From contig JAGVVL010000013.1 in the NCBI GenBank assembly GCA_018287875.1, forward strand, positions 1,302,001 to 1,366,000: a stretch of 64,000 nucleotides of DNA, given 5' to 3'. This DNA comes from Nigrospora sphaerica (lineage: Eukaryota; Ascomycota; Sordariomycetes; Amphisphaeriales; Apiosporaceae). The notes under the pieces were generated by a model that did not search any database, was not told the DNA's origin, and worked only from the letters and a program-made list of their open reading frames with translations. Shown here piece by piece: positions 1,961 through 51,205 of the stretch (positions are counted from its first letter, which is position 1; each line of letters starts with the position of its first letter). The position numbers and the translations under genes were made by a program.

Positions 1961-2049
1961 CGGAGTTAAGGCGCCGGGATTGGGAGCCTGTAAGCGACTT
2001 AATACAGGCTCACGCCATTTAACGACTGGGGGCTCTCGGTGCGCGGCTC

Positions 2050-3390
2050 CTAGAACCGGTTAATAGACACGGCTGCAGCGGAGATAGGCTGGGGGGACCG
2101 AATGAGCGTGGGTAGTTGACGAGTGGGTAAGGTCGTGGATATTGTGGGGGGCGGGCTTCCTCGGGGGCTCGGAGTACGGGCCTGGCGGAACCGGATAGGT
2201 CGGAGGTCAGGTTCGGGGCATTGGGCGACTATGTGGCCTGTATAGCCGCACCGAAAACATTCTCCTCTCTCTCTTCGACTAGACGGAGAGCGGGGGCGGC
2301 TACATTGGTGACTTAAGTCCATAAGATCACCGGCGTCGGTCTTAGCAGCAGGCAGGCAAGGTTCGTTCCAGGGAGGCACGTTATAACCGGCGGGGGTAGT
2401 GATGCTGTTAGTCTTAATCGTTCCTTTATAACCGTTAACCTGCCGCTGGTGCTAGCAGAACCGGTTATCGAGAGTCTGAAGATGACGGGCAAACGCGCGA
2501 TACTCTCTCGTGGGGGCAGGGTTATGTAATAGCATGTCCTGGATCTCTCGGGACACACCTTGGGACAGTAGAGGGGGCAGGGCAGCTTCGGGGACCTCGC
2601 TTTCCAACGCGAGCCTCTTAAACTCTGCGAAAAAGACGCTGAAGTCGAGGCTCCGTTGTTTTAAATTGTATAGTTTATTTTCAGCATTCTGCTTCCGGTC
2701 CGGGTCTCTAAAGGCTTCTTCTAGGTATAACAGCATATTGGTATAGTCTGTAAACTGGGGGATTCTATGTTGGATGCGGGGCAGGATTAGGTCGTAAGCT
2801 TTTCCGGATAAGCGGCTAGCGACGTAATTTAGGCGGGAAATAGCGGACGGGAACCGGTCGGCGTTGGAGACCATCTTCGAATGGACTTGTTGGACGAACC
2901 TCCGAAGGTTGCTTCGAGTTCCATCAAACTCCTTTAGGTCAGGGATCTTCTCACTAAGGGAGGTGGGTTCGGAACGTGAGGCAGGAGCAGATGTAAGCGT
3001 TCGCGGAGCATGATCTACCGGCGCTTCAGTGGTAGGTTCGGGACGGGGTGACTGTTCGGTCGGGGGTGTCTGTACAGTAGGGAGGGCGGCTTGGAGGAGG
3101 CGTTCGTTCTTAACGCGGAGGTCGACGATGATCTTTTGGTCCTTATCTGAGCGGCCCTCTTAGTAGCGGACTATCCCTTCTTTTTCTACAAGGGCGATTC
3201 GGACAGAGGCAAGGGAGGAGTCCCTTTCAGCTAAAGCAGAGTCCCTTTCAGCTAAAGAGGTTTCCAGGTTCGAGATATACCCATATAGCGTGCGCAGGTA
3301 TAGTAGCCATCCAGACGCATCGTCCTAGACGCTCGCGAGCAGTTCTCCGGGATCTTCGGTATCGGTAGGTGCGGTAGGTCGGTTCGACAT
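2050..3390 (-). pseudogene. Gypsy gag polyprotein remnant
   Basis: A capsid-like reading frame begins with ATG near 3390. It runs through a region rich in Glu/Arg/Ala repeats (3180-3260), then a retrotransposon gag domain (2452-2874) and a CCHC zinc knuckle (CFRCGYTGHIVAQC, about 2220-2265). The frame is interrupted by stop codons around 3329 and 3170 and by a frame break between 2452 and 2379. The domain order is certain, but the protein cannot be made as it stands. Confidence 0.75.
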
Positions 3391-7144: not shown

Positions 7145-9200
7145 TCAGACGGCTTCCCTCGGGTTAAGTCCCGCCGCTTCGTTATCCTCAGCGCCGCCGT
7201 GCGGTTCCGCCTCCCCCGGCCTACTCCGGCGCAGTCGCACTTTGATGGTCTGCGCGACGGCTTCGAGCTCGTCACTCGTCATGAAGCGATCCGTCTCGGC
7301 GCTGGCCATCTCAAGAGGGTCGTAGGCCGAGCGCGACAGCCCCGCGGGCTCAAGCCCGGAGAAGCGCGACTTGTAGTAGAGGAGCGGCAGGACGCTGCTC
7401 TTCCACACGGCCTCGCGGTCCCGATAGCGGACGCTGCGAGCAATCATGTAAACGAGTAGGGTAATGTCGAGGGCCAGGAGGGCCATCAGCAGGATCAGCC
7501 AGGTCCACTCGATGCGTATGTGGGCGACTCGTTGGACGGATATTCCTTCGACGCGCTCCGTCGTCCCGTCCACCCGCAATAGGCCGTTTCGGATTTTGAC
7601 CGTCAAAGCTTCAGCTATATCGTGGAAGGAAGCGCTGAGGAACCCCGAAGTGGCGTTTCCATTATTGAATAGAGTCCCAATCCACCTGGGCGCCGTTAGT
7701 TCTCTCTTCTTTACTCGGTTTCAGTCGTTGGTTTACTCACAAGCGGTCCCCACAAAAGAGTTCCATTTCGCCGAGAGTGGTGGTGTACCGGCAGGCACCT
7801 GGACCGAAGGTTGAATATACCCCTCCAATGACACTGTTAGCGCGCATGTCTATTCGTGTCACGCACTCCTCGGGTGCTCGGGTTGGCGGATAGCCCGGGG
7901 CTGCATCCGCTGCTAGCAGCCTCACAGGCACGGCGCCCGGGGCTTGTGACATGTTGGATACCGAATAGATGTTGTTGCCGATCTTGCAAGGCGATCGAAT
8001 GGCCGACAGGTTATACCGGTTGTATTCGTCAACTAGTGCGACTTTCAGCCAAATTTCTGTGCTGAGCTCTGCTCCAATTCCGGCGTAGTCGCCGAGGTCG
8101 GGTACTAAAGGGGTAGTGTCCAGCAGCTTTTCGGACAGTTTGTTATCTCTTATGCTTGCTGAATACGACCGGAGACAGGTATAGAGTGAGCAAGCAACTG
8201 CTACTGGGGTACCTGGAGGACCGGGTGGTCTCTTCGAGTAATCCATCTCCACGTCGCGCACGGTCAAAACGGTAGCGTTGAAGAGTGCCCATCGGGAGGC
8301 CGAAACGTGTTCTGTCGTCATGACTGTTTCTGCCCAGCTTAAATCGGAGGTTGTATTGACTGTTAGCCACATTTCTTCAGAAGTAACTGGGATCTCAAAG
8401 GTTGGGAATCTGTAATCGCTTTCATTCCCCCGTTTCACTAGCGAAGTCAAGTCGAAACAGATGCTGCAAACTCCCAAAGATGCGTGCGTGGTCTCAACGC
8501 CGGCCATCAAAGGCGGGAAGTCGCAATTGCCAGTGGGACACTCAGGAGAGAGGGTTGACTCGGAGCTTTTTGGGTTACTGATGGCATTGAAAACGGATAA
8601 CCTTGGGTTGATAGGAAGAGATGAAGTGCCGAAATCACCTCCTCCGGCGTAAAGGTAGCTCGAGGGGCTTGAACCGCCGTTCATGGTTGTCGAGATGGGT
8701 AGCGAGGCTGCGCCGAGCTCTGAAGGGACGTCTCGGTAGAAAATGCGAATAGACTGTTGCGCAAATGGGCTCACCAGCAGTGAGGTAACGAGGGTCAAGA
8801 CAGGCAGCATAGCTAAGGGATAATGCCGTGCCACAATAGGGATAAGCTTTAAACCTCCTAGCAGGCTCCTACTGCCGGCGTCGAAAGATTGTATATGGCT
8901 GATAGGACGACGACCGGACTCGGGTATCGACCAGAACCATATCCACTTCTGCTGGCTTATAATCTCTGTGGCCGTTGCCGCTAGACAAGCGCGGAATAGA
9001 GTCGAGAGTGTGTTAACGAGGGAGTTGAGTGTAATCGGGAGTTGCCACTCTTCCTGAGGACGTTTGTCGACGCACGCGAGGATAACAATGATGGCCGTTA
9101 AGAGGATGGAAGAGGACGTGCAGCAGAGGACCTCCCACGTCCAAGGGACGAAGGCACTTTGGTACGCGCCCCTATGCACATCGTTCGATGCCTTCGTCAT
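7145..9200 (-). CDS. DUF3176-family membrane protein
   Basis: Two exons, 9200-7741 and 7685-7145, are joined across a 55-bp intron (GTGAGT donor, CTAAC branch, CAG acceptor), giving 666 residues. The N-terminus has the family layout: two adjacent hydrophobic segments (residues about 20-45 and 55-75), an IISQQKWIWF block, and a third transmembrane stretch (PLAMLPVLTLVTSLLVSPFAQQ). A long extracellular-type domain follows with paired cysteines (CPTGNCDFP) and Asn-glycosylation sites. Exon 2 adds a final transmembrane helix (WTWLILLMALLALDITLLVYM) and a WKSS-LPLLYY motif typical of the family C-terminus. The function of DUF3176 proteins is unknown; they are common in Pezizomycotina and often lie near HET-type and secondary-metabolite genes. 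Confidence 0.88.
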
Positions 9201-11498
9201 CGTGGTGGCGACGAAGATGTTGCTGGGTGAGGGTTTCTATCGAGCTCGAAGACATCGAGTAGCCAAGACAGAAGCTTGGGTCCGAGTCCAGGGGGCGCAG
9301 CTTCTTTTATACTACATACTAGACCCCGGCCATCCCAAAGCCCTGCAGCAGAATCGGAACCGTATGTATATACGCAACCCAATCAGAAGACCCCGTAGAC
9401 GTGGGGCTCGGTGTGCGATGTCTTGGCGAGCACCTGAAATCTCGGTAAGAGGTGCTCCATATGCATGTCAGATTCGTGCGGGGGCTGTTGGGGGCTTGGC
9501 GTGAAGAAAAAGAAGAAGAACCCGGCCACGGTTGTGAAAGTGTATACGCCAGGTTGAGAGGTAGAAATTGAAGGTGATGACGACGATGATGAGGAATGGG
9601 ATAGGAAAGGTAGCACGTTGGAAAGATGGCACGCTGGAAAGATGGTGAAGAGGGTCTCAAGCCTTGCGTTGCACGGCTGGGTGGACCAGGTGGCTTTTGC
9701 GCTATTGCCTATGTAGGCAGTAAACCCCGACCTTGCGCTAACCGCTTTCGTAGCACAGCTTCGTCTCCCCATGCACGCGCATGCTTAGAAAAGATTTTCT
9801 GGTGCATGGATGTCCCCGAATATCCGCCGTATGTTGAAGTACCCCCACGCTGTTTTTTAAAGTGCTCGAGGCGTGCCTGTGCTCGGGGGTTTGTATCACA
9901 TATTTTCCATGCTCTGATTACTTCCGGTAAAGCAACCCATGGAGATTAAGTCTTCATCAGTAATACTTAAGGATTTACTTCGAGACGCCGGGTCGTCATG
10001 AGCAGATCGATTTGACAAGGCGAGCGAATCTTCTCAGAAAGATATGGACAGGACGAAAAGAGTGTGTACAGGGAGGGATAGGGCAGTACATAGCCAGAGA
10101 CAGGGCAACCTGTGCTTTTTAGGGAGTACCGCCCGCTTGGTGAGGGCGGGTACGTTCTCGAAGCTTTTGTCAACGAAACTCTCATCACAGCTTGCTATAG
10201 GGCAAAAGGTGCTCTCGTCTGTCGATCGATCGCTGAGGTGATGGGAGGTCCCGGATGCTTGAGCCTCGTCTCCGGCTGCCTTGCAAGTTGGGCCCTAGGC
10301 GCGGGTTACTACGCTTAGTACTGGGAGTTCCAAGCCTGTTTAATACTGACTGCCATGGGCATCTCTCCTTGGTCTTGACGCTTGGCACTGTTCCTACTCC
10401 CACTGAGACCAAATGGACTTTGGTGTAGCTACGTGGAGTCTCGTCCTGTGGCGCCACACATTAGCCGGGAGCAGCTCACGCGGGTCGTCGTGAGGGAAAT
10501 AAACGAAAGTTTGCAATCCGGGCCAGTGAGCAAGCACATCTACCTGCGTCAGCGCAACATCACAGAACAGACCTTGCCGGCTATTCTTCCAGAGGGTGTG
10601 CAAGACGTAGACACGTCTCGTCCACTGCAGAACGAACAAGTGTGACGGGACGGCAAAAGCCGGGGCGGCGGCCAGCTCGAGTCGCCCCTCCTCGGCAGTG
10701 TGACCCTGCTGAATTTTGTGCCAGACAGCCACGGCTTGCCACTATCGGCGCAAAGGCCAACATGCGCTTCTGGAAGATAAGCTCGCCTCCACTGCTGCCC
10801 CGTTCCATCGAGACGATCAGGCAGCGACCAGGGTGTAAAAAGGGCAACGGCAGCCCAATACTCACATTCCTTACGGCGTTTCGTCCTCCAGAAGATCCAA
10901 ACCGTTGAGAAAGACGAGTGCCGCCCAGCGGCCCGTACGGCATATGTCCCGTGACAGTGGCGCCAGCTTTGGGCCGCAGCGCGAGCACTAAACCAGCTCA
11001 TCGTCGTAATACTGTACTTCGTCGAGTATGAATTGTGTTCTTGGTGGCACTGAGTAGCTATAATCACGACACAGGAGCAAGAATTGGGGGTTGGCCAAGG
11101 AGGGGGTGATAGCAGAGGACCGATATAACAGCAGGTGACGTCGGCCACAAATGAGTGACGTGCCGCTTCATGACTCATGTAAGTAGATGAACAGAGTTAA
11201 AGATTTGTCGGTCAATCGCGAAATGCACAAGCAATTCGTTCAACCTTGACGCTAATGCATAAGTCTGCACGATGTCTCAAAAAGCTCCCTCGAAGCCGGT
11301 TATCTGAATGCAGCTACCTTGGCGCAAAATACGACGTCAAGGGAACTCCCGTCACAAGCCAACGCCCAATCACAGCATAGACGACGAACAGCATCTGGGC
11401 CCTTGTCCCTCTACTGCAATCTTTCCCAACACTCACGTCTTTCCGTGAATGGACAAACATCGCATCTCATCATTTTTCTCGCACTTCGATTCTTCATC
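9201..11498. other. Intergenic with unassigned open frames
   Basis: No gene can be supported. Two overlapping minus-strand frames (10394-10732 and 10581-10988) are unusually long for spacer and contain no tandem repeats, so a decayed or intron-containing gene is possible, but I recognise no domain in either and no set of splice sites joins them convincingly. The stretch 9490-9620 is rich in GAAGAAG/GATGATG simple sequence. Confidence 0.4.
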
Positions 11499-12445
11499 AT
11501 GTCCACGGCCCGATCAAGCCTCGATTCTGTGGTCCTGGCTAACAGATCTGATCAGTTACTTCTCCAGAGCCAAAAAGCAGCAAGAAGGCCAGCCTGCGTG
11601 ACAAACAATCCACAAATATTGACCTTCGTCTTTGGAGTTTTGGCCGGTGCCATTCTTGTGGTACTATTTGCTTTTATACATGGCCACGAGGCCAGGCCGA
11701 TACAAGGTCAGCTCGCTGGGGAGCTCAACGGCTTAGTTCCCAACTGTGAGTGGATAAAAACGCCCGGAATCGGACTTGATACACCTCTTGTACTTGCCTA
11801 ACGGCCTTCCGCCTTTGCTATCTCAGTTACTCTTCACAAAGTCATCTTTGAAGAGGACCCGCGAGCTACCGTTGATCATGAGACGACCGAATCTCAAAAC
11901 GCTACCAAAGAAAACTGGCTGTCATACATGCCTGGTAAGAGATCAGCTGTTGCGCGTGCCCTATCTGCACTCCGTACTAACCTGCCTTTGGATCATAGTC
12001 GGGAACGGATTCGTTTCCATTGACAATGCGGCAGCGTATGATCTCCCGCCGCCGATCCAGATGAACGGACGGGACGTATACTCTCTCGCCTTTACCCATC
12101 AGCTCCATTGCCTAGTCAGTAAGACCTTCCCATGTTTATACCTGCGCTATAACTGACATTGCTGGTGCCTGCCATTGTTGCTTTCAGTACAGCATTATGG
12201 ATAGGTACAACGGACTGCTGGATGGGACGGCCAGTCCCCATACTGACTACAAGCACATTGACCATTGCTTCCGGTACTTGCGCCAGTCCATCTTGTGCTG
12301 TGGCGATACGGCACTCGAGGGTCAGAATCCACGTCACGCCTATCCAGGCACAGACGGCACAGGGGCGGTTCACATTTGCAAAAACTGGCCGCAGCTCTAC
12401 CTTTGGGCCGAAGGGAGACGGAGTAATGATAAGAAGGTAATATGA
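11499..12445 (+). CDS. UstYa-family (DUF3328) oxidase, copy 1
   Basis: Four exons (11499-11745, 11827-11934, 11999-12114, 12188-12445) give 242 residues with every junction in frame; intron 2 has a perfect TACTAAC branch. The protein has a short cytosolic tail, one transmembrane anchor (residues about 45-65, ILTFVFGVLAGAILVVLFAF) and a lumenal domain. The domain carries the family's two histidine motifs, HQLHCL at the end of exon 3 and HIDHCFRYLRQSILC in exon 4. In ustiloxin, phomopsin and asperipin pathways such proteins oxidise and cyclise the core peptide. An upstream in-frame ATG at 11319 is possible but would add about 60 residues not typical of the family. The gene lies about 640 bp from the 3' end of the convergent precursor gene. 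Confidence 0.88.
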
Positions 12446-13086
12446 CGGCGAGGAGAAGAAAACCTACGACGAGGAAGATTCTACAAAAGTTATGAATGTC
12501 TTCAACATACGTACACAACTGATTCTGCCTCCATCACGTTTATGCCACCACAAACAAGCCACACATGTCATGCTCCCGTGGGTACGGGTTTCACGAATGA
12601 AATTGATTTCCACATGGGTTCCGGAAGTTTCCGTTAGAGTCAGCGTGTGTAAGGGTAATGAGAGACAGGGTAACAGGCACGGTTCTCATTAGCTATCTAC
12701 CGCCGTGAAAGGTGCTAGTTGATCTAGGGCCTTGTCCACGGGTTATATCATCTATAAGATGGTCGAAATACCTGGTGTACCATATCAGTTCCCTATTTAT
12801 TTTCTTTTATCGCATTCGTGCGAATATGGACATCATCAGTTGATGCGCCCTTGCGAGTTCAACATATACTATGGGGATCGAATAAATATAAAGTCGAAAT
12901 CGATTCAAGTAAGGTGTACTGAAATGAAAACCATCGAAGCCATATTTACACATCGTTCCAAGGCCAGGAGGTGGGGCATCGCAGCATGATGGATGGCATA
13001 ATCGATTTGCTACTGGAACTTGAGCATCTAGCTGAGTCTATGCCAAAGCCTCCAACGTAGTCCTCGACGCTATACACAGCTCCAGT
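12446..13086. other. Convergent 3' flanks; AT-rich
   Basis: This spacer lies between the ends of the convergent UstYa-family gene and the precursor gene. The only structured element is the extra core-like unit at 13039-13086, listed separately. The remainder (12700-12980) is AT-rich and holds only short frames. Confidence 0.6.
13039..13086 (-). repeat. Decayed fourth core unit after the precursor stop
   Basis: Read in the precursor frame beyond the TAA at 13087-13089, codons at 13039-13065 again spell EDYVGGF followed by Gly-Ile instead of Glu-Val. Its spacing from the third core is exactly 19 codons, and the stop codon occupies the position of the Arg in the expected Lys-Arg. It therefore looks like a former fourth repeat cut off from the open frame. 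A 21-nt GT...AG pair spans the stop, but that is too short for a normal intron. Confidence 0.75.
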
Positions 13087-13407
13087 TTACTTGTCGACTT
13101 CGAAGCCTCCTACGTAGTCCTCAACGGCGTCCGGAGTCTTTGACCGCTTTGCAACTTCGAAGCCCCCGACGTAGTCCTCAATGACCTCTGGGGTCTCTGA
13201 CCGCTTTTCAACCTCAAAACCGCCAACGTAATCCTCAACTACGTCCGTGGTCTCTGACCGCTTGTTGACATCCGGAGCTTTCTATATGCATCTTGTCAGC
13301 GCTGCATAACATGGATCGTGTATCAGAGTTCCTCTGACCTGGATGAGGATAGGCGAAGCTGTGGCGAGGCCAGCCATGACCAAGACGAGACCGTTGGAAA
13401 AGCGCAT
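13087..13407 (-). CDS. RiPP precursor peptide (dikaritin type) with three repeated cores
   Basis: Two exons, 13407-13339 and 13281-13087, flank a 57-bp intron (GTCAGA donor, CTGAC branch, TAG acceptor) and code 87 residues. Exon 1 is a signal peptide (23 residues, starting MRFSNGLVLVMAG, hydrophobic, small residues near the end). Exon 2 is three tandem 19-residue units, each with the identical core EDYVGGFEV (13210-13236, 13153-13179, 13096-13122), set off by Lys-Arg at 13258-13263, 13201-13206 and 13144-13149. This signal peptide, repeat and Kex2-site plan is that of UstA/PhomA-type precursors. The two UstYa-family genes and two tyrosinases nearby fit the pathway. The core is acidic-flanked and contains Tyr and Phe, as expected for phenol cross-linking. 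I do not recognise YVGGF from any named product; whether the product is toxic is unknown. Confidence 0.85.
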
Positions 13408-13524
13408 CTGGAACAACGGCAGGATACTGATAGAGGAATCTGGGCAGATACAGGATGCTAAACTTGGGTATTTTCGAGTCTGGGGATGAGAAAAACATTT
13501 CTCTCAGATGCAATGGGTTTCCAA

Positions 13525-13534
13525 CCATTTATAG
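13525..13534 (-). promoter_or_regulatory. TATA box of the precursor gene
   Basis: Read on the minus strand the sequence is CTATAAATGG, about 120 bp upstream of the precursor ATG at 13407. No other TATA-like motif lies closer on that strand. Confidence 0.5.
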
Positions 13535-15486
13535 AACCCCGCCCGACCTATCTTCTACTTAGGCCCGTCGACCTTTGTCTTGTTCCGAGCCCTCATTGCC
13601 GCCCGACTCAAGCACTCTGGCTAAGCAGCACATGTTCCGCCAAGTCGGGCTTGATCCATGTGCAGACACTAGCGACTGCCGTGGTATATTCTGAAAGCTG
13701 GTCTATAGAGGCGGACTGAGTAATGCAGCACGACAACAACCAAGTCATACCACGGGGAAGTGCATATGTGCGTTTGGGTTCTTTGGGTAGTTACAGTGAC
13801 TCCAGACCCTGCCGACCTAGGTTGGGCCGCTGCCCTGGCTCAAGCTTGGCGTTAGCCTGCGGCTGTAGTGTATGAGGGAGTCTAGGAACGGAGCGGATGA
13901 ATGGGCCCTATCCTGGGCTAGACGATACTGTTCAGCTGCTAGTACGGTGGAGCAGGCCAAAAGGCCTTGCAGGGGCTTTCGCCATTGGCGGTCCCCCTGA
14001 GATACTGCCAAGCCAACTAAAAAGAGCGCCGTGAGAGGCACCGCTGATGGTTTGAATCCTGGCACCAGGACTTGCGGTTGTGCCACGTACGTGCAGAAGC
14101 TGGTGTATAAAGTCTGTAGATAGCTGCTGAGTCAGATGGGTGCCATCAGTCACCGGATTTGGCACCCGGATGGTCGTCGTTTCTCTCAAAGCGAGCACAG
14201 AGACAGGGCCAGTCGTAAATAGGGCGATACAGTCGGTTTAAGCTGTGTCCGCATGTACTCCCAGTATAAGGCTCCCTATATTTTTCAGTTTCTAATGGAG
14301 ACGTGAAAGGCTTGTTTGGCGTCTATTGCGCTTCCCAATACGCCATGGCTTCAGCACTGGCTGAGTCGTAAGAAGCTCACCGAGGAACTTAGACAGAGTC
14401 CCGAGAAACATCGCCCACCTTTGGAACTCTATTCTGCACCCGAAATGATGGCTGCCGTCGGGCACCTACAATTTCTTGGGTTCTCCAGATCAACCATGAC
14501 TCGTCTAGCGGGAAATCCCCTGTGCAAGATAACATCAAGCAGATTTTCACGACTTGAGATGGCACCCTCACGCACGCTTATGCCAGCACCGCTGCCATAT
14601 CATCATTATTCACATGTTCGAAGTCTACTCTAGCGGGAGCAAGCCCACGGAATTCCAATTTCAACAACCGGCCAATCGGTATCACCCAGGGTCTTGTTCC
14701 ACGACAGCGGAAATCCCGGGGAGGAGCAAGAGTTTTGGGAACCCCCGCATCGACTGATTCTCACCCTCAAGTTATGGAACTCCCGGCAAGGGCTGGCTCG
14801 CTGGGCTCTGGAAAAGTTCGATTGGTTCGTCCCCTTTTTATTATCGTGCTCGGGTTCAGCAATAAACTAACCACTACTACATGTACCTTGGTTAGTGACG
14901 GAAAGTTCCGGTGCTAGACGGTGAATGAAATTTCCTTCAAGTGGACTCAGTGGTTGTTAGCATTAAGTTCATTAGGACCCGCTTCAATACAACGAGTCGC
15001 GAATCAGTCCCTTGGATGATGCCAGACCGTATGAAGCGAATTGGAAAACTTTACTGACAGTGTTTCGAGAGAACCTGCGGCAGGGTTTTGAAGGTCCGTT
15101 CCGCCAGATGCTGTCCCGGCTTGGCCGGGCCTCCTCGCCATTTCCGAGGCGGGGGAGCTGTACTGCAAACTAGGCAGGCGTTAAAATGCAACTGTTAATA
15201 TGAAGAGATGATAGTAGCTCGGAGATTCACAAAATTCATATGCGGAGGTGCGTATGAGAGACGCAATGCAAGTCTTTAGTGTTGGTGAGTCACGAGAAGG
15301 CCCGACCTCGCTGAGACTGCACCCGTAGACAAGCGTGCTGCCTACCGCCAAAACCAAATGTTTTCCTCTCCGCATATATTTTGGTCCTCATCAAAATGAT
15401 GGCACGTCGGTGAAAGATTTGGTAAACCACTCGGACATCCTCACATATGTTCCGGACTGTACTGCAAGTTTCATAGAAACGTGTCC
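13535..15486. other. Intra-cluster spacer with unassigned coding-like stretch
   Basis: No complete gene is supported. The plus-strand frame 14634-14870 stays open for 78 codons and has protein-like composition (EEQEFWEPPHRLILTLKLWN), but it has no ATG and I recognise no family. The frame 14316-14633 just upstream could be an earlier exon or a decayed part of the same gene. Their place inside the cluster would suit a lost tailoring gene, but this is only a guess. Confidence 0.35.
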
Positions 15487-16127
15487 CTAGTACCTGTAAC
15501 ATAGGGAACCCGTCATAGTATCCATGTACTCTGCTACCGTGCCATCATGTACCAGGTCGCCCATGGGTAAAATGTCGGTCAAAGCGGCTCCGGTGCTCTC
15601 GGGGGTGCGAAGGAAGTTGTCCAGCGCCCCGAAGAACTGTCGCAGGCGCTGGCTGGGTTGGCGTTGCTGCCACAGCCACCAAAGCCTGTCGACTTGGGTG
15701 TGATGCAAGAAGAACACAGGATCTTATCATCGTAAGCAAAAGCTTCATAGAATCTAATGTCCCCTAAGTGCGGTACTTGGGGCAGTCCTACCATTGGGTG
15801 ATGAGAAGGTTGTCCATTCACCTCGGATAAACAGCGGAATCGCATTATGCGGCCCGTTCTCGAAGGCGCGGAGGAACGAGTCAAAATCTGGTTGTGACAA
15901 TACCGTTTCAACGTAGTCTGGACCGATTTTGCTCTGAATGCGGGGGATGCGTTCCCTCTCCACTTCGGTCGCGTTGGTGTCCTCGTTCAGGAAACCGCGC
16001 GCGATGCAATGCGGCTCGTACACAACCGTGTTGGCTCCATCGATGGGCTTGACAAGCCATGGACGCCTGATGCCAGCGAAGGGCCCGTCGTGGATGCAGT
16101 GACCGCCATTGAGGCTCTTGGTGCTTA

Positions 16128-17988
16128 AGTTCGAGGACCCCCATTTCGGCCCCCCCCACATTTCGGCCCCCTAAAAACACCACGCTTAAAACCAGCCATA
16201 TCAATAGAAGTTAAGATGCAGCCTTAATTAATAGCAACTCTAATGCAGGAACTGGCCTCACTTAGGCTTTCGCTATCGCTCTCTTCATCTAGACCATTTT
16301 CAACCTCCCCGACCGCTAACTGAGCTCGGTGGATGTCTTCAATGTTCGCGAACTTCGAATTAGGGCTCAAATCCACCTTCTTCCTCTTCCTTAGTCTGAT
16401 AGTGTCAATCCTAGCTTCGAGGGCCTGAATTTGCCTTTGAGTAGTAGCCAATTGGACGTTCTTCTCATCAAAGGCCTTTTGGATCTTCCGGAAGAGTAGT
16501 CGTTGTGTGGTTGAGTGTTTCGCTAGCTGGTTCGAAAGCTGTACTTGGTCCTTAAAGTCCGACGTCTTCTTTGGAGTTGACTAAACCACTATAGAAGTAT
16601 GGGATCTCGTTGGAGGTGTTGAGAGGACCCTTTTCGAGTGGGATTCCTTCGAATTTACTGTGTCGGGTGTTGTTTGGTGTATATTTTGAATTAAATTCCG
16701 GCTTAGAAGCGGTTTAGCCATACTCACTAGCCAGAGACCAGCTGCTTTCCACCTATTCCGGATATTCTGGCTAGTAAGGCTAGCTAAACGAGCCTTCTAA
16801 TAGCAGGTAAGGAAATTTCGCTTGCCAACTACCGTAGAGTCCGTTAACTAGGTCAGAAATCCGAGCTCTTTCCGGTATGCCGATTTTAAAGAACTGAAAA
16901 CGGCTAAATCGAGAGGTTGGAGGACATGAGAGGTATGAGGGGGCAAAAACAGAAGATAAATCCGGTGCGAGAAGCATTGGAACATAAAATCAGTCGTTGT
17001 ATGGCTTCCATGGCCGTCCATAATAAGTAGGCGGTACTCGGAAGGGTCCTCGGGGGTGGTATTCGGGATAAAGACTTTCTCGAGCCACTCGAGCGCTGTT
17101 TCGTCTGTGATCCATCCGTTTTCGGTTGCAGTGAACTGCCAGCCTCTGAATTGGCTTAAATCGACCGGGAACCATTGCTATTAAACCGTTTTGCCCTTGA
17201 AAATGACTAATAGGGGCAGGGCGTGGCCTTAAGCAGAGATGCATTCAATGAATGACGTCCAAGCACGAGAACCAGGCTGTTTCTTTCGGACTGAGCGTTT
17301 TTCGGAACCTCCAAGTACTAGACCATTCGATCCAGCACCTTTTAGGAGTCCTGCTTCATCCATGTTATGGCGGTTAGCCGGCTTCACCCTCTGGACCTCC
17401 GGCAGCTGAAAATATCGGAACTATAAGCGAATTACCTCGATTGAGGCGCCATTAACACGCTGCGAGTCGATAGACCGGCTCTTCTGGACCCGTACAGCTG
17501 GGTTCCTGCGTAGGAAGGCCTGCAGCCATCTCTTTCCAAGTGGCTCGCTGTCGCCCTGAGCCCGGAGGATACATTCGGCAAACTCCTTAACTTGGGCATG
17601 GGAAGGTGGAAGCCCTAGGGCAGCTTGGGTCAGGATCCAATTCGTAAGTAACTCTTCCTGGACTGGTCTGAGCCTCTGTTGGTCTGCAAAGGCTTCGGGC
17701 CTAGGTTGATGGCCTTTAATTCGGCTTTGCAGTGTTGACTTCGGTATGCCGTAATCTCGAGAGGTCTGCTTAATTCCACCCCCAGCTGCAATAGCAGTTA
17801 AGGCTTGTTGAAGTTCGGCTTCTGAATATTGCTTCATAATAAGAAATTGAATGCAGATACCAAGTTTCGGATAGATTAAAGCAAATTTGCTAAAGTAAAT
17901 TCAAAAAGAAGTCGAGGGGCTGGAAATTCGGTGGCTGGTTTTTGGGGGGCCGAAATGTGGGGGGGGCCGAAATGGGGGTCCTCGAACT
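16128..17988 (-). mobile_element. Complete pogo/Fot1-like DNA transposon with TIRs and TA duplication
   Basis: The element is 1,861 bp with terminal inverted repeats of about 50 bp that match almost perfectly; the outermost bases are AGTTCGAGGACCCCCATTTC. It is flanked by the TA target duplication at 16126-16127 and 17989-17990. The TIRs contain a double ggggggCCGAAAT motif. The transposase gene reads on the minus strand, the same direction as the tyrosinase it splits. Confidence 0.93.
16224..17837 (-). pseudogene. Pogo/Fot1-like transposase, broken
   Basis: The start at 17837 gives 138 open codons with a Psq-type helix-turn-helix (residues about 5-45, GGIKQTSRDYGIPKSTLQSR) and a CENP-B/Tc5-type domain (about 55-120). 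The DDE_1 catalytic domain follows after stop codons: a first-Asp block MDEAGLLKG near 17345-17365 and the second block LLIMDGHGSH near 17000-17030, then LLFLPPHTSHVLQPLD near 16905-16955. The C-terminal coiled and acidic tail is in 16224-16451. At least two stops (near 17421 and 17180) block translation, so movement would need a transposase made elsewhere. Confidence 0.82.
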
Positions 17989-18669
17989 TAAAGGGTCCCC
18001 GTTACCTCCAAAACCGTGCTCTCCGTCCCAGATGGGCGCCGTGGACAAGTCCTCAGCGTCGAGTGTCCAGTCCCAGTACCTAGACGAAGATAATCAGCAA
18101 CGCAGACACCAGGCGCAAGGAGGGACAAACTCACGGTTGCGCCCCTGTATACCCGCAGTTGTCCTTCAGTTCTTGTTCGTGAACGTGGACAAAGAAGCGA
18201 TGCCACGGCAGGAATGCCGCCGTGTAATGGGTCACGTGGCCAAAGAGCCCGTGTACCCTAACAATATCATCATAGCGGGAGGTATTGGGAGTGACCATCG
18301 ATGGCTGTTGTGCTAGGCAGTGTACGGCCTGCAAATAATTGTGTTGATCCGTGGTAGTGAGGGATCGCCACTCCTTGCGATGGGTCGGATTTTGGCAGCG
18401 CTCGGTCGTGAAAGGGAAAACGGACAAATAGACTGCGCTCGGCAACAAAGCTATCACCAATACAGCGGAGAAAAGGAGCAGAAGTAGGCAGCTGAGTACA
18501 AGACAGACAGTCCTTTTGCGAATTAAGCATGTTGTTTCTGATTAGAGGCTGAGACGTATACTTACTTGGATGCTGGCCTAGCCTTTCCCTTGCCGGCGCA
18601 TTGGGATTCTGGTACCTCTTCAGTTGAGGAAAGGGGCCGGTAAGCCCACTTATTGCGTGGAGTTTGCAT

Positions 18670-19089
18670 TGACCGATGGTTGGTTTGGCGGCGGTAATGC
18701 TTAGAGCTAGATGCGATTCCGCCACATGGGAAAAAGGTATCAGTTCGCCGCCTCGCTTAGGGTGTTGTAAAAAAACGACGACGGATGTTGAAAGAACTAG
18801 TCACAATCACGTAAGGATTTCATGTGATCACTAGTGGATTGAAAAACAAAAAGGCAAAATTCCACGCATGCCTAATTGTCCCGTGGTCCGCGCGTGGAGA
18901 GTAATAGATATTTAAAAGGCTTGTTGCCTCTACCCATCACACTGCAACCACGTCGCCTAGTGTATGCTAAGAGAAATCTGGTCAGGGCCATTCCTATAAA
19001 ATAAACTTCAGTAGTTCCCCCAGCTCCTGTCAGGACTCTTTGGACAGCCTTTTCCTGCCCTCTCACCCACTCTAGCTCTCTGTTCCATT
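18670..19089. promoter_or_regulatory. Divergent promoter shared by tyrosinase 1 and UstYa-family copy 2
   Basis: This 420-bp gap separates the tyrosinase start (18669, minus) from the second UstYa-family start (19090, plus). A plus-strand TATAAAATA lies at 18995-19003, about 87 bp before the ATG. Such a compact divergent arrangement suggests co-regulation of the two cluster genes. No specific regulator site could be identified. Confidence 0.55.
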
Positions 19090-20106
19090 ATGTCCGTGAC
19101 CAACAACGTGTCTAGTGGTTCCTCCAGCTTGACGGATACGAGTGACGGGGACTTGTTAACGATCTGCACCACAGACCTCGAGAAGCAGCCCTTCGAATCC
19201 GGCGACGCCTCAACTTCTGAAACAAATATCCAACAACGCGATGGCCGCCGTCAATACCCACATCTCAACCGTTGGCTGCTACTCTCTTCACTTCTCAACG
19301 TCTTTCTAACCATAGCCTTCATTGTAGTCCTTTCACTTTACGTTACACAGTCTCGGTGCGGCGGTAAAACTTGTACTGAAGTGGACCTAGCCAAAGAGCT
19401 TCACGCCCAGGATATGACACCGTCCTGGCTCCCGCCCGAAGGTTAGCCGCCATGCACGATACCACCGGCGTTCCCTAACGGAGAGAGGAACTGATGTCGC
19501 GCAGTCCCGGTGAAAAAGACACTTTACTTCAATCGGCTCTACGGTCGGCCACCCGACGAGGAGAACCAAAAGGCGTGGGATGAATTGATGCCACGTATGT
19601 CACATCCGGGACATAACCCGTTCGTTCCGCACTCTCCCCCGAACAGAGAGACTGACTCAAGGTTATACAGTCGGGCGTGGTTTCATCGTTCTGAGGAACG
19701 AGACGCCCTTGCCCGATATGCCCTCGTTGCACCAAGAAGTGCCTAAACAGCATGCTCTGGTCTCGGCGTTTCACCAAATTCACTGTGTCGTGAGTCGGCC
19801 CGCCCCCGGTGGTTCTTTTTGCAACCTACTTACCGCTGTATCTGATCCCAGTGGGCGTCCAAAAACAGCTTCTTCAAAGCGTTGAACGGCACCGCCGACG
19901 CCGACGATGTTTTGCACATGTCCCACTGTTGGGACTACCTTCGACAGGCCATCATGTGCCACGCCGATACCACGCTCGAATGGATGCCCAACTCGGAGCA
20001 GCACGTAAGCAAGGGCTGGGGCTATGAACATCGATGCCGGGACTGGGATGCTCTCTTCAATTGGGCCGAGATCAACAGGTGGGGTGATGGGTACGGAGTT
20101 CACTGA
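19090..20106 (+). CDS. UstYa-family (DUF3328) oxidase, copy 2
   Basis: Four exons (19090-19441, 19505-19594, 19662-19789, 19852-20106) give 274 residues, all junctions in phase. A Ser/Thr-rich cytosolic tail of about 60 residues precedes a transmembrane anchor (LLLSSLLNVFLTIAFIVVLSLYV). The lumenal domain has the family's conserved FNRLYGRPPDEENQKAWDELMP block (split here at exon ends; about residues 124-147) and two His motifs, HQIHCV at the end of exon 3 and HMSHCWDYLRQAIMCHADTTLE-like in exon 4. It is closer to the canonical UstYa pattern than copy 1, which lacks the AWDELMP block. In known dikaritin pathways two such proteins act together. Exon 4's first residues (WASKNS) are less certain than the rest. 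Confidence 0.9.
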
Positions 20107-20639
20107 ATACGAAGATGGAGCGGCGGCATTCGCGTGGGCGGAAGATGGCACCATGGGTCCTGGGAGTTGCAACGTCGGAATTTTGTGCGTCTAAATGCTT
20201 TGAAGTTTTCTCCCATATCATAGTTGAAACCAGGTACAGGCCGACAAAATTAAGAATTCCAAGTGGATACCGGCGAAGGAAAACTCCGTCCAAACTTTAC
20301 TGGTCGCTAAAAATGATCTGGGAGGCCTTCACCAACTGCCGCCATCGGTCCGTCATAGGACTAAATAAGATTAATCTAGAAAGCAGTTGCTGCAGGGGCA
20401 CGAGTAGGGTCCAGCGCTTCGACGCTGGCACTAATCAAGCTTTTCATCGACCGATGATGAACACCACGATAAACAAGATCATTGACATGGGCTTATTACG
20501 TAACGGGGGACCTGCTAACGTTCTGGTCAAGCGAGGCGGTTTTGTTGCTCCTCGCCCGAGAAGAATCGTGGCTCTCTGCTGATACGACTTCCTCAGCATT
20601 ACCCAAATCGCACCCATTATTTGGCATACTTGCTTCAAA
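20107..20639. other. Spacer upstream of tyrosinase 2
   Basis: No gene seen. The open frames 20115-20582 (plus) and 20072-20293 (minus) match nothing recognisable. This is presumably the 3' end of the UstYa-family gene and the promoter of the next tyrosinase. Confidence 0.55.
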
Positions 20640-22045
20640 ATGCCAGCACACGGCTATATAAAGCTTTCAGGTATTTCGGACGTGCATGATGAGAGCAAGG
20701 AACGTCGGTAAGCATGATGAACGATCTGTTTCCTTGTACAGTGCACCTGCTTGCTAACAGCGCTCAATTTTTCAGGTTTGCCGGAAATACCAGCCGCATA
20801 TTAACCATCGGAGCCTACGTCGTGATTGCTTTCTTACTTACCGCTACCTTTGGTACCTTCGCTGGGCAATTTTATGCCTGGCATTTCCAACTTAATCTCC
20901 CCTGCAAGAATCCGTCCATAAGGCGCGAGTGGCGAGCTTTGACCATGGATGAAAAGCGTGACTTCATCCGTGCCTTTAACTGTCTAGCTACCATACCATC
21001 GGCCTGGAGATCCAATGGCACTATCTACGACGAGTATGCATATTTGCATGGGACTATTGGGTCTTGGGGTAGGGCTTCGTGCACGCCGTTTTCTAACCGG
21101 TTGAAAATTTTCTGACGCTGATTGCGATTGCTCGGCCTCTAGCCCATCGCTCTTCGTCCTTCTTCCCATGGCACCGGTACGCACTTCATGCGTGGAAGAA
21201 TACCATGAAAGAGCACTGTGGGTACACAGGGGAGGTACCGTAGGTGAACGCCGTTCCTTTTGCTTTGGAGGGGAAACAATGCCGTAAATGGCTCACGCGA
21301 AGTGCATAGATACTGGGATTGGACGCTAGATCATCGGAATCTTGCCAACTCATCGATATGGGACAGCGATGGTGGATTTGGTGGTGATGGAGACCCTAAC
21401 GGGACTGAGACGGTCGGAAATGGTCGGTGCGTTGTCGAAGGGCCCTTTGCTCACCTACGCCCAATACGTGAGTGCGATACACAAAGCCCCGGGGCAACTG
21501 ACATTCCGCGTGGGTCAGACAGGGTTTTGACAGAGATTTCAGGTTACAACCATACTTACGAAGTGCACTGCCTATCACGGGGCTTCAATGATAACAATGG
21601 AGCCAAGGGTCTTCTCCCCAACCGGCCTTTCAGCCCCGAAGAGGTCGCCAGTATGCTAGGAAATGACTCTTTTTTGCACTTTACGGCGCAGGTTGAGAAG
21701 CTTCTGCACAATGAACTCCACCAAGCCATCGCCGGGGACTTTCTTTCCCTGACCGCCGCCAACGGTAAGTAACATCCGCCTCGTTGCGAGAGTCCGTGTC
21801 GTTCATTCTCGATTGCAGATCCCATATTCTTCCTTCACCACGCACAGCTGGACCACTTGTGGTGGCGGTGGCAACACGACAACTGGCCGGAGCGCGCGCA
21901 TACATACTATGGAAAACACATGTTCAACTCTACCGGTCCTGCGGGTATAGACGATATGCTACTTTACGGGGGTCTCGTTCCGGATATACCCGTTTCCCAG
22001 GTTATGGATACCGAGAATGGTATGCTGTGTTATACCTACAGCTAA
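20640..22045 (+). CDS. Tyrosinase (UstQ-like), intact copy
   Basis: Five exons (20640-20707, 20776-21068, 21143-21239, 21310-21764, 21819-22045) give 379 residues without a frame break. The tail has the same Tyr-x-x-Leu-Ser start as the other cluster tyrosinase. A membrane anchor follows (ILTIGAYVVIAFLLTATFG), then copper-A (AHRSSSFFPWHRYALHAW and PYWDW) and copper-B (LHNELHQAIAGDF and DPIFFLHHAQLDHLWWRW). All six copper-binding His positions look present. The start is chosen because exon 1 keeps frame across the first intron (GTAAGC donor, CTAAC branch). Alternatively transcription from TATATAAAG (20655-20663) with unspliced ATG 20714 would give a different short N-terminus. With the neighbouring copy broken, this may be the only working tyrosinase of the cluster. 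Confidence 0.9.
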
Positions 22046-22942: not shown

Positions 22943-25492
22943 TTAACCCACAACGACAGTTCGCCACTGGGTCTTTGCCTTGATCCACATGTCGGGATAC
23001 ACAACACCCACAGCCACACGCCGACACACGCCTAGATCGTCCTCTTCTGTAATCATCACGATGATATTCCACTCGAGCCACTGGCACAGCTTCTTGGCGC
23101 CTCCTATGCCATCGGTTTCCCGGATTTGCCTCTCCGCGGCACCAACGCCCAAGACGAGCACTGTGTACTCCTTTTCTGGTGGCCCGGAACAAATGTTCTT
23201 TACCAGCCAAGGACTCATGCGCATGGTAATACCCAAGTGTTGCCCATCCTGTGTGGTGATATAACATCCGGTGCGGAATCTGTGGGCCTCGATGATGGAC
23301 CATCCGAAGCCGAATGGTTCCAGCTGCAAACGGGCCACCGAGGTGTTGAAAACCAGGGCATTGGGAATCCCCGAAGCAAGCACACATGCACTCGGCGAGA
23401 GCGTGGATAGGTCTTCCCTCTCTTTCGGATCGTCGGTCATCAGCGGGGGCCACCAGTACGCCGTCTCGTGTTCCTGCAAGACGCGGAAAGCCGTTTGCAA
23501 CCGTTCTGCCGACGAGAGGTCTTCAAGGAATCGCGTCCGCGGCGTCGCGTGTTCATTGGTGAGCTTGGCCCCCTGCTTGGCGACTGCCTCGAGGCACTGG
23601 CTAACGATGTGGTCGATGGCGTCGTCGGGGACGTTGGCGGGTCGGTCGTTCTCGGCGATCGAAGCCGGCCACCATTCGGGGTCCATCTGCTTGATGACCA
23701 TGAGCGCCCACCAGCGGCATTGCTTGCGCAGCCGCGCGAGCGCCATGTCGGCCTCAATAACGCGTCGGAGCCCGGCTTCGGGGTCCGAGACATAGAAGTC
23801 GACGACAGTGGCTCGCACGCCCGGCGTCTCCGCAAGAAAGGTCCTGCCAATGGCCCAACCGTCGGTCCAGTCGACGCCGTCCATGGACGAAGCCCAGCAC
23901 CAGCTCGGGACGCCGGGAACGCTTCTTTTCTTTCCCCCGTCGTCGCTCGGGATCCACAGCAGGGACGGGAGGAAGAACCGCTCGGGGTGACCACACAGCA
24001 CCTTCGTGTCGAGCCGCTTTCGCAGAATGCTCCCCACTCCTGCAAAAGCGTTCAGAATGTCCCGTTGGAAGGTGAGAGACCGGGGGGTGTAGCCGCGTAA
24101 AGGTGTGATGTATTCCTCCAGCGAAACCTTCATCTCTTTGTGAAGATGGCTTCCCAGTCCCTTCTCCTCCCAGTGTGGCGATTTCATCCATGCTTCCTCC
24201 TCGCATCCGGCCGTATTCTCGGACCAACGCTCACGGCAACAATTGCCATAAAGCTGCCCCTCGTCAAAGTACAAGACGCGTCGGGACAGGTACTGTTCTT
24301 GAAACGTCCAGGCCCGGTCGTTCCATTTAGACTTTTGCACTGCCAGCTCGATCCACGGGATCACGGCAATACCCATGGGGTTGCGCATCGTAGCCAAAAG
24401 GTCCCACGAATGGTTCACGTAGGTGGCGGGCCGGGGTCGGGACGAGATGCCCGGGAGGCCGCGGGTGACGCCATCGCCTAGAGCGACAATGGTCAAGAAG
24501 GCCCTGTGATAGACGAGTCCCATGGCGTCGAGTTGCTCGGCTTTGGTGTCCAGTTCATCCTGGACGATGCAGAGCCGATCGATCCACAAGTACCGCTGCC
24601 CCAGTTCGGCGCATAGCTGAATTGCGTTCACGATCACTTCCGGGAGCTTGTCGCGCTGCAGACCTCGTGGAGCCTCCAGAAGCTCAACGTTGTCTTTCTG
24701 CAGTTGCAGCTTCTGCTTTTCGGCCGAGTCGGACGCCAGAGACCAGACGTAGCTCAGGGTCACATAGTCATCCGGCTCAGGCATGCGTACCACGCACCAT
24801 TCGTACGTGTCCACCAGACGAAACGACGAAGGCAGCCTCATGTCTTTCGGGGTTTGCAAGGCGTTGCAAACGGGCCCGTGCTCATGAGTACACCGGGACA
24901 GCCATCGCTCGACCTGATGGTAATTTATGCTGCTTCTTTGCCATAAGGACGCGGTTGATAGGCCATAACACCATTGCTCGTAGCGTAGCTGAAGATGCAG
25001 GATGCGCGGCTCGAAACCCCAGTCGTCCTTAGATGTGGGCGAGGTCGCAATAACGACGGCCAAAACAATTCTCTGCACCGTCGGTAGCTTTCCGCTTTGA
25101 GCGGCAGCCTCCTCGGACACGGCGCGGTGTTCGTCACAAGGGTCGTGTACGAACGGCTTCCAGACCGCAATCTTGCACTTTGTCTCGGTCGCATTATGTG
25201 CCTCGAGTGCTTCACGGACCCGCGCGCAGATGATGCACGCGCCCGCGCCAGCGAAGTCGTGGAGCTCGCGGAACTCGAGGTCTTTCAGTTCTGCGTACCT
25301 GTTCTTTTGAGCTGGGGGCCACCATGGATTATGCTTGTAGCTGAAAAGGAGCGGATTCAGGGGTGCGAACTGGGCCTGCTTGGTGCGGCAAGAGGCGACA
25401 TGCTGCAGGTCATCCCAGTCTTGACAGTCGTCGCACAGCTTGGGATTATGCTGTCGCGGACGGTCCGAGTCACAAAAGCTGCATTTGCTCAT
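22943..25492 (-). CDS. HET-domain (heterokaryon incompatibility) protein
   Basis: A single intronless frame of 849 residues. The N-terminus has cysteine pairs (CSFCDSDR and KLCDDC, then CIICARV) that may form a small zinc site. The HET domain occupies about residues 240-400 and shows its three hallmark blocks: DDYVTLSYVWS, RYLWIDRLCIVQDE and WNDRAWTFQEQYLSRRVLYF. The long C-terminal half has no known domain. HET proteins trigger cell death after fusion of unlike hyphae in some cases, but most, including this one, have no assigned partner. It borders the RiPP cluster but nothing in the sequence ties it to peptide synthesis. Confidence 0.93.
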   Translation of the reverse strand: MSKCSFCDSDRPRQHNPKLCDDCQDWDDLQHVASCRTKQAQFAPLNPLLFSYKHNPWWPPAQKNRYAELKDLEFRELHDFAGAGACIICARVREALEAHNATETKCKIAVWKPFVHDPCDEHRAVSEEAAAQSGKLPTVQRIVLAVVIATSPTSKDDWGFEPRILHLQLRYEQWCYGLSTASLWQRSSINYHQVERWLSRCTHEHGPVCNALQTPKDMRLPSSFRLVDTYEWCVVRMPEPDDYVTLSYVWSLASDSAEKQKLQLQKDNVELLEAPRGLQRDKLPEVIVNAIQLCAELGQRYLWIDRLCIVQDELDTKAEQLDAMGLVYHRAFLTIVALGDGVTRGLPGISSRPRPATYVNHSWDLLATMRNPMGIAVIPWIELAVQKSKWNDRAWTFQEQYLSRRVLYFDEGQLYGNCCRERWSENTAGCEEEAWMKSPHWEEKGLGSHLHKEMKVSLEEYITPLRGYTPRSLTFQRDILNAFAGVGSILRKRLDTKVLCGHPERFFLPSLLWIPSDDGGKKRSVPGVPSWCWASSMDGVDWTDGWAIGRTFLAETPGVRATVVDFYVSDPEAGLRRVIEADMALARLRKQCRWWALMVIKQMDPEWWPASIAENDRPANVPDDAIDHIVSQCLEAVAKQGAKLTNEHATPRTRFLEDLSSAERLQTAFRVLQEHETAYWWPPLMTDDPKEREDLSTLSPSACVLASGIPNALVFNTSVARLQLEPFGFGWSIIEAHRFRTGCYITTQDGQHLGITMRMSPWLVKNICSGPPEKEYTVLVLGVGAAERQIRETDGIGGAKKLCQWLEWNIIVMITEEDDLGVCRRVAVGVVYPDMWIKAKTQWRTVVVG

Positions 25493-25769
25493 GCCTTCGT
25501 CTCGAATTCCTAGCTTGTTTGAGTTTGGTAACGTGAAGGTAGGCGGTGGGACAACGAGGAGTTCAAACGAACAAACAAAAACAAAGGTGAGACGCTAATC
25601 TAATAATAGAACTACTGATTGTATTGGTTGCAACGGGAAAATGTTCTTCCGTGAGATAACTCACGAGAAGGCTATATTGCAACCGGAAACTTAACGGTCT
25701 TGCTTTCCTTATCTAATAACAGTATTAATCTCCGTGACCTTATCGACGCGCTGCCTGTAAGCCTAATAT
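25493..25769. other. Upstream region of HET gene; left flank of LINE array
   Basis: AT-rich sequence with no gene. The last 14 bases, tgtaagcctaatat at 25756-25769, are repeated at 35473-35486 and mark the target-site duplication of the LINE pair. Confidence 0.7.
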
Positions 25770-36630: not shown

Positions 36631-36700
36631 CCCGGCAGTCGATGCCATCTCCGAAGAGTACGACGTCCTGGCTATCCAAGAGCCCTGGCGAAACCCAAAT

Positions 36701-39700: not shown

Positions 39701-39763
39701 AGATGGCTACTCCGCTCGCGTAGGCTGGACATGTTCCAGCTGGCGAATCAACTCATCAGCTAA
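36701..39763 (+). pseudogene. LINE copy 3 ORF2: endonuclease, reverse transcriptase, CCHC end
   Basis: Three in-order open segments are separated by single stops. 36701-37534 is the endonuclease (VLVGDFNVHHPVWGG, GSDHLP). 37607-39037 is the reverse transcriptase with an intact FADDTNL catalytic box and VPQGSPLSP. 39110-39763 is the C-terminal region with CVCGQGRETVRHILVFC, a CCHC-like motif common at the end of Tad/CRE-type ORF2. The stops at 37532-37534 and 39035-39037 are TAG codons in RIP-like context. Copy 3 retains the best preserved ORF2 of the three. Confidence 0.87.
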
Positions 39764-51056: not shown

Positions 51057-51174
51057 CTTGTTGGCGAAGTGGCTGGTTGAGATTTCTAGGTGGAAGAAGA
51101 TAGGAAACTTGATAGAGGCAAAGGAAGTATAAAGCGAGCGAAATGTAGTTAGGATGTAGTGTTGGATTGAGTGT

Positions 51175-51205
<31 letters not shown>

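What the first reader, a model, noticed from the sequence alone, without database searches (positions are those of the whole stretch)
11499..22045. Unrecognised dikaritin-type RiPP gene cluster
In 10.5 kb lie a Kex2-repeat precursor, two UstYa-family oxidases and two membrane-anchored UstQ-like tyrosinases. These are the gene classes known to build ustiloxin, phomopsin and asperipin macrocycles. The core EDYVGGFEV is not one I know from those pathways. A Tyr-Val-Gly-Gly-Phe core offers a phenol for ether or C-C closure and a Phe partner. The cluster lacks any peptidase, P450 or methyltransferase I can see, so its chemistry may be minimal.
Basis: partly seen in the sequence, partly recalled or inferred. 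Interest (0 to 1): 0.95.

Follow-up and report, generated by a model that had tools for sequence, protein, structure and literature searches.

The report
Fungal cyclic-peptide cluster, one gene broken
This stretch of a fungal genome holds a small gene cluster of the kind that makes ustiloxin-like cyclic peptides, but its peptide lacks the amino acid through which ustiloxin rings close, and one of its enzyme genes has been split by a recently inserted jumping gene.

Summary
Window 11499-22045 holds a Kex2-repeat precursor, two UstYa-family genes and two tyrosinase genes. The core EDYVGGFEV is identical in three tandem units that differ in the core only by silent changes, so the peptide itself was under selection.

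UstYa1 is UstYb-like (47% to U. virens ustYb) and Tyr2 falls in the UstQ clade. Precursor, two UstYa proteins and UstQ are the set reported to make the first ustiloxin macrocycle, so a dikaritin-type cluster is well supported.

Tyr1 is broken by a young pogo/Fot1-like element (16125-17991; other copies 98-99% identical). A fourth precursor unit lies in frame beyond the stop.

The new point is chemical. Ustiloxins and phomopsins, the characterised tyrosinase-dependent families, close from Tyr to Ile in a Tyr-x-Ile-x core. Here that place is Gly, which has no side chain. If the pathway works, the ring must close elsewhere. Activity is unknown. No precursor relative was found, and a text search for the core found no fungal peptide; published precursor tables could not be read.

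The parts
11499..12445 (+). UstYa1, UstYb-type DUF3328/UstYa oxidase, 242 aa, exons 11499-11745, 11827-11934, 11999-12114, 12188-12445; one hydrophobic anchor segment; both HxxHC motifs present
13087..13407 (-). Kex2-repeat precursor, 87 aa: N-terminal hydrophobic signal-like segment, intron 13282-13338, then three 19-aa units ending in KR or K, core EDYVGGFEV
13204..13260 (-). precursor unit 1
13147..13203 (-). precursor unit 2
13090..13146 (-). precursor unit 3 (last translated unit)
13033..13089 (-). relic fourth unit in the same 57-base register; begins with the precursor stop codon (13087-13089), keeps EDYVGGF, otherwise diverged; not translated
15487..18669 (-). Tyr1, PhomQ1'-type tyrosinase gene, coding region interrupted by the element at 16125-17991
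16125..17991 (.). pogo/Fot1-like DNA transposon (54-bp inverted repeats, 98% complementary; Tc5-type HTH, psq HTH and DDE_1 domains), young family
19090..20106 (+). UstYa2, divergent DUF3328/UstYa oxidase, 271 aa, exons 19090-19441, 19505-19594, 19671-19789, 19852-20106; hydrophobic anchor segment; both HxxHC motifs present
20640..22045 (+). Tyr2, UstQ-clade tyrosinase, 354 aa, six exons, hydrophobic anchor segment, histidines present at all conserved copper-site columns

Best explanation
A small ustiloxin-type (dikaritin) RiPP cluster. Shown from sequence: a precursor with an N-terminal signal-like segment and three selected copies of EDYVGGFEV between dibasic sites; two UstYa-family oxidases with intact HxxHC pairs; an intact UstQ-clade tyrosinase; a second, PhomQ1'-type tyrosinase gene split by a young transposon. 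Inferred: the precursor enters the secretory pathway, Kex2 cuts it into 17-19-residue peptides, and the copper enzymes UstYa1, UstYa2 and Tyr2 oxidise the Tyr and close a ring from its phenol to a side-chain carbon. The usual acceptor, Ile two residues after Tyr, is Gly here, so the ring, if made, must close on another residue, most plausibly the Val next to the Tyr, the Phe four residues on or the second Val; the sequence does not choose. Host peptidases would trim the peptide. The loss of Tyr1 may have removed a step or left it to Tyr2.
For: Pfam hits. Silent-only core variation. UstYa1: 54 homologs, all named ones fungal; U. virens UV8b_06025 at 47% over 83%, named ustYb in PMC12028740. Tyr2: A. 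parasiticus UstQ 49%, U. virens ustQ UV8b_06024 52%; UstQ clade 100/100. By equal contig lengths, 10 of the 54 UstYa1 homologs share a contig with one of the 120 listed (of 318) Tyr2 homologs (hand count). Passages of PMC6514808: ustQ, ustYa and ustYb are essential for, and in A. oryzae gave, the first cyclic intermediate. Passages of PMC7329392: ustiloxin-type precursors (G-10) keep Tyr and Ile in 441 repeats apart from three deletions, and close Tyr to Ile. Passages of PMC12435403: the HxxHC pair binds two coppers. This is one of only two places in the genome with UstYa and tyrosinase matches within 20 kb.
Against: No expression or product data. Tyr1 is broken and the precursor has lost a unit, so the pathway may be failing. 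The core has Gly where characterised tyrosinase-dependent rings close. UstYa2 is far from the UstYb set (about 27-33% identity; end branch 7.1), and no database search could be spent on it. No S41 peptidase in the window, although the review passages list it among conserved dikaritin genes.
Confidence: 0.6

Rival explanations
1. A dying cluster: it once made a cyclic peptide, but the transposon in Tyr1 and the shortened precursor mean that no mature product is made in this strain.
For: Element in the Tyr1 coding region with close copies at 98-99% identity; fourth unit left untranslated and diverging. Ustiloxin and phomopsin closure each need a tyrosinase.
Against: The precursor and the other three enzyme genes have open frames with normal splice sites and intact metal motifs. 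Tyr2, not Tyr1, is the UstQ-clade enzyme. The insertion may be specific to this strain.
Confidence: 0.25
2. UstYa1 and UstYa2 close the ring alone, as AprY does for asperipin-2a, and Tyr2 does something else, such as making a catechol on the Tyr.
For: AprY, a single UstYa homolog, makes asperipin-2a ether rings to beta-carbons without a cluster tyrosinase (passages of PMC6514808).
Against: UstYb-like and UstQ-like genes share contigs in 10 species, and both are required together in ustiloxin B.
Confidence: 0.1
3. The precursor yields linear secreted signal or pheromone-like peptides and the oxidases nearby are unrelated.
For: Most repeat precursors lack nearby UstYa genes (6120 of 7878), and some act as linear peptides (passages of PMC7329392).
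Against: Two UstYa genes and two tyrosinase genes within 9 kb, against under 0.01 expected of each family in 10.5 kb; Tyr-containing core.
Confidence: 0.05

Closest known systems
Ustiloxin B pathway (UstA, UstYa, UstYb, UstQ; Aspergillus flavus, Ustilaginoidea virens)
   Same: Kex2-repeat precursor, two UstYa-family oxidases, UstQ-clade tyrosinase; UstYa1 47% to U. virens ustYb, Tyr2 52% to U. virens ustQ
   Different: Core has Gly in place of the Ile that takes the ether bond; three translated units; no methyltransferase, P450, FMO or PLP enzyme matched in the frames scanned (21 of 33 of at least 190 aa)
Phomopsin pathway (Diaporthe leptostromiformis)
   Same: Tyrosinase(s) plus UstYa-family enzymes; the 3' piece of Tyr1 groups with phomQ1' (97/95)
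   Different: Five UstYa genes there (PMC7329392 passages) against two here; Tyr-x-Ile core there; Tyr1 is broken here
Asperipin-2a pathway (AprY)
   Same: Few-gene cluster with Tyr-containing core lacking Ile (PMC6514808 passages)
   Different: One UstYa homolog and no tyrosinase there; bicyclic product
Victorin
   Same: A Kex2-type multicore RiPP ring that uses Phe (PMC9233826 passages)
   Different: Chlorinated, Phe to Leu closure; genes not compared here

Membership tests
Dikaritin RiPP clusters | Precursor with secretory signal and near-identical repeats bounded by KR | tested here: met
   Three units with KR sites, silent-only core variation. Signal judged by hydropathy only (mean 2.4 over 11 residues); no signal-peptide program was run
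Dikaritin RiPP clusters | DUF3328/UstYa-family gene(s) beside the precursor | tested here: met
   PF11807 over cut-off for both; UstYa1 ends 0.64 kb from the precursor stop
Dikaritin RiPP clusters (phomopsin/ustiloxin type) | PhomQ/UstQ-type tyrosinase | tested here: met
   Tyr2 in UstQ clade 100/100; Tyr1 3' piece with phomQ1' 97/95, but that gene is broken
Dikaritin RiPP clusters | S41 peptidase in the cluster | tested here: not met
   PF03572: one match in the genome, on contig C33, none in the window. Listed as conserved in a review passage, but asperipin-2a lacks it among its four listed genes
Dikaritin RiPP clusters | Zn-cluster regulator in the cluster | tested here: not met
   PF00172: 148 matches, none in the window; nearest at C5:1369463, 3.5 kb beyond the window end and 45 kb from Tyr2 (150 of 250 candidates scored). 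Listed as conserved in the same passage
Dikaritin RiPP clusters | Methyltransferase or P450 tailoring | tested here: inconclusive
   None among 21 of 33 open frames of at least 190 aa; short exons not scanned
Ustiloxin/phomopsin core (G-10 precursor type) | Tyr-x-Ile-x core closed Tyr to Ile | tested here: not met
   Gly at the Ile place in the three translated units and in the relic unit; core rule from passages of PMC7329392
UstYa (DUF3328) copper enzymes | HxxHC...HxxHC pair | tested here: met
   Both motifs in UstYa1 and UstYa2 at columns conserved in 45-47 of 47 homologs
UstYa (DUF3328) copper enzymes | Two coppers bound, dimer, O2 dependence | not testable with these tools
   Known for CctR (PMC12435403 passages)
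Dikaritin RiPP clusters | Cross-linked peptide product | not testable with these tools
   needs mass spectrometry

The most novel reading that the evidence does not exclude
UstQ- and UstYb-type enzymes in this fungus, and perhaps in the Coniochaeta and Apiospora relatives whose UstYb forms a clade with UstYa1, have moved to a Gly-Gly core and close Tyr onto Phe or Val, giving a macrocycle class outside the Tyr-Ile ethers of ustiloxin and phomopsin.
Probability: 0.35. Interest if true: 0.65.

Novelty: new variant of a known kind. Interest (0 to 1): 0.45.

Why it matters
How UstYa and UstQ enzymes share the ring-closing work, and what fixes the site of closure, is not settled in the passages read here. 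A natural cluster with the ustiloxin-type enzyme set but no Ile acceptor would show whether these enzymes are tied to Tyr-x-Ile or can close other rings. The young insertion in one tyrosinase also gives a natural comparison, if strains without it exist, of what the second tyrosinase adds.

Tried and rejected
Tyr1 decay by loss of a copper ligand: Tyr1 has Pro where Tyr2 has the second CuB His. I first took it for decay; among 120 homologs this place is His in 55, Pro in 59 and another residue in 6, so it is a subfamily trait, and the idea was dropped.

Second Tyr2 intron: the 379-aa Tyr2 used for still held an intron (21468-21542). The corrected 354-aa model raises identities slightly (A. parasiticus UstQ 49% to 53%).

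Precursor relatives: none in the protein search and no second copy in this genome. A scan of 20 fetched stretches found six other repeat-precursor-like frames beside UstYa genes, none with a Tyr-x-Ile core and none beside a tyrosinase match. A second UstYa plus tyrosinase place on contig C16 showed no repeat precursor in 14 kb.

Solved structures: UstYa1 matches none at E <= 1; Tyr2 matches tyrosinases, catechol oxidases and hemocyanins.

Genes in the 13.5-15.5 kb gap: six open frames of 84-108 aa or so there gave no family above cut-off. The species was not identified.

Full report
What is there. The window lies at G000:C5:1302001-1366000 of a 51.6-Mb fungal genome in 33 contigs. Hand-made gene models with canonical GT-AG introns give UstYa1 (+, 11499-12445), the precursor (-, 13407-13087), Tyr1 (-, 18669-15487, interrupted), UstYa2 (+, 19090-20106) and Tyr2 (+, 20640-22045). 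The models rest on reading frame, splice signals and similarity, not on transcripts; early versions of UstYa1, UstYa2 and Tyr2 were out of frame or kept an intron and were corrected. To the left lies a DUF3176 gene (7737-9236), to the right, 0.9 kb after Tyr2, a HET-domain gene (22943-25594). Reverse-transcriptase fragments lie on both sides.

The precursor. After a 23-residue exon with a hydrophobic stretch and a 57-base intron come three 19-aa units, R-S-x-T-x-x-x-x-EDYVGGFEV-x-K. Core codons differ between units at 6, 7 and 3 of 9 places, all silent; the other 10 codons carry 4, 4 and 5 amino-acid changes. Counting by hand on those units, at least 9 changes occurred in the core, none changing an amino acid, where about a fifth would be silent by chance. 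So the core was kept by selection, the flanks less so. The frame then stops, and one further unit follows in the same 57-base register, keeping EDYVGGF but changed elsewhere; it is no longer translated.

The oxidases. Both UstYa proteins carry the two HxxHC motifs at columns conserved in 45-47 of 47 homologs; in the CctR enzyme this pair binds two copper ions (passages of PMC12435403). UstYa1 has 54 homologs at E <= 0.001. It forms a supported clade with proteins of Coniochaeta sp. PMI_546 and Apiospora hydei (98/96) in a tree of 26 rows that includes U. virens UV8b_06025, which PMC12028740 names ustYb (passages). UstYa2 is only about 27-33% identical to its best matches in that set, has a very long branch and could not be searched further.

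The tyrosinases. Tyr2 falls with A. parasiticus UstQ and U. virens ustQ in a 16-row clade at 100/100 in a tree of 28 rows and has His at every conserved copper-site column. The two sides of Tyr1 were handled apart; the 3' piece groups with Diaporthe phomQ1' and a Zymoseptoria protein (97/95). That tree warns of two long branches elsewhere, and the piece fills 44% of its columns. Tyr1's Pro in place of the second CuB His is shared by 59 of 120 homologs, against His in 55, so it is a subfamily trait and not damage.

The insertion. A 1867-bp stretch with 54-bp inverted repeats (98% complementary) and Tc5-type, psq and DDE_1 transposase domains sits inside the Tyr1 coding region. The genome search scored 40 of 200 candidates and lists 40 long matches including this one; five other full-length copies and one partial copy are 98-99% identical, the rest 81-91%. 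Most full-length copies align from base 2 to 1866, which fits an element flanked by a duplicated TA (that pogo-type elements target TA is recalled, not from a call). The insertion is therefore young on this family's scale. Whether other strains carry it is unknown.

Linkage elsewhere. By equal contig lengths, 10 of the 54 UstYa1 homologs share a contig with one of the 120 listed (of 318) Tyr2 homologs: in Chaetomium tenue, Diplogelasinospora grovesii, Aspergillus bertholletiae, U. virens, Cordyceps fumosorosea, Cladobotryum mycophilum, Pseudoneurospora amorphoporcata, Sordaria brevicollis, Bombardia bombarda and Lasiosphaeria hispida (hand count). Only in U. virens do the locus tags also show them to be neighbours. 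The closest UstYa1 relatives (Coniochaeta, A. hydei) are not among the 10. No tool here holds those fungal contigs, so their precursors could not be read.

How it most likely works. In ustiloxin B biosynthesis ustQ, ustYa and ustYb are essential for the first cyclic intermediate, and expressing them in A. oryzae gave it (passages of PMC6514808). The same gene classes are here. Kex2 release and oxidative closure from Tyr are inferred. The usual acceptor is Ile two residues after Tyr: in ustiloxin-type precursors Tyr and Ile are kept in 441 repeats apart from three deletions (passages of PMC7329392). Here that residue is Gly in each translated unit. Glycine has no beta-carbon, so that bond cannot form. 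Rings through other residues do exist: asperipin-2a uses Tyr to beta-carbon ethers, made by one UstYa homolog, AprY, and victorin closes Phe to Leu (passages of PMC9233826). Val, Phe or the second Val are candidates; nothing here chooses among them.

Against this reading. Tyr1 is broken, the precursor is shortened, no expression or mass data exist, and no S41 peptidase or Zn-cluster regulator lies in the window. A failing or silent cluster is the main rival.

Genome background. The same genome shows six other repeat-precursor-like frames within 1.1-2.7 kb of UstYa matches, none beside a tyrosinase match, so this fungus is rich in such loci and an unfamiliar core alone is not rare. In the survey of 1461 strains, 1758 of 7878 repeat precursors had UstYa-type neighbours and 341 tyrosinase genes were counted near precursors (passages of PMC7329392). 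What sets this locus apart is the ustiloxin-type enzyme set with a core lacking the acceptor.

Literature. Seven paper searches were made. Only looked for the core letters: three papers, none by title or abstract about fungal RiPP precursors. Six papers were read as passages only. Ding et al. 2016 is not held, and supplementary tables were not available, so earlier listing of this core cannot be excluded.

Noticed in passing
G000:C9:405174-405674 (L014) and G000:C10:3523195-3523686 (L015): Two repeat precursors with almost the same unit (NNVDAAATRAGWLY) 1.3-1.4 kb from UstYa genes: apparently a duplicated cluster rich in UstYa genes.
   Followed up: partly
G000:C10:3008268-3008600 (L031): Repeat precursor with units AYLVSYPEEDDKVAKR, 1.1 kb from the UstYa gene closest to UstYa1 in this genome (40%).
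   Followed up: partly
G000:C7:2199243-2200139 (L023), G000:C1:7498734-7499999 (L026), G000:C10:3643771-3644478 (L032): Three further repeat-precursor-like frames near UstYa genes: Tyr/Lys/Gly-rich, His-His type and Trp type.
   Followed up: partly
G000:C16:1439383-1444271: The only other place in the genome with UstYa and tyrosinase matches within 20 kb; no repeat precursor seen in 14 kb.
   Followed up: partly
window 49752-51215 (-): Open frame with a signal-like start and a long Pro/Lys/Glu repeat (KPLEPKPKETKPPQPKPEGPKARGEPIPPPPPAS) between two Cys-containing ends; a likely secreted or cell-wall protein.
   Followed up: no
window 36614-39763 (+) and 650-3159 (-): LINE-type element (endonuclease plus reverse transcriptase, three adjoining frames) and a Ty3/gypsy-like element, so the region is rich in mobile elements.
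   Followed up: no
window 62015-63554 (+): Multicopper oxidase (laccase-type) gene.
   Followed up: no
window 22943-25594 (-): HET-domain (heterokaryon incompatibility) gene directly beside the cluster.
   Followed up: no
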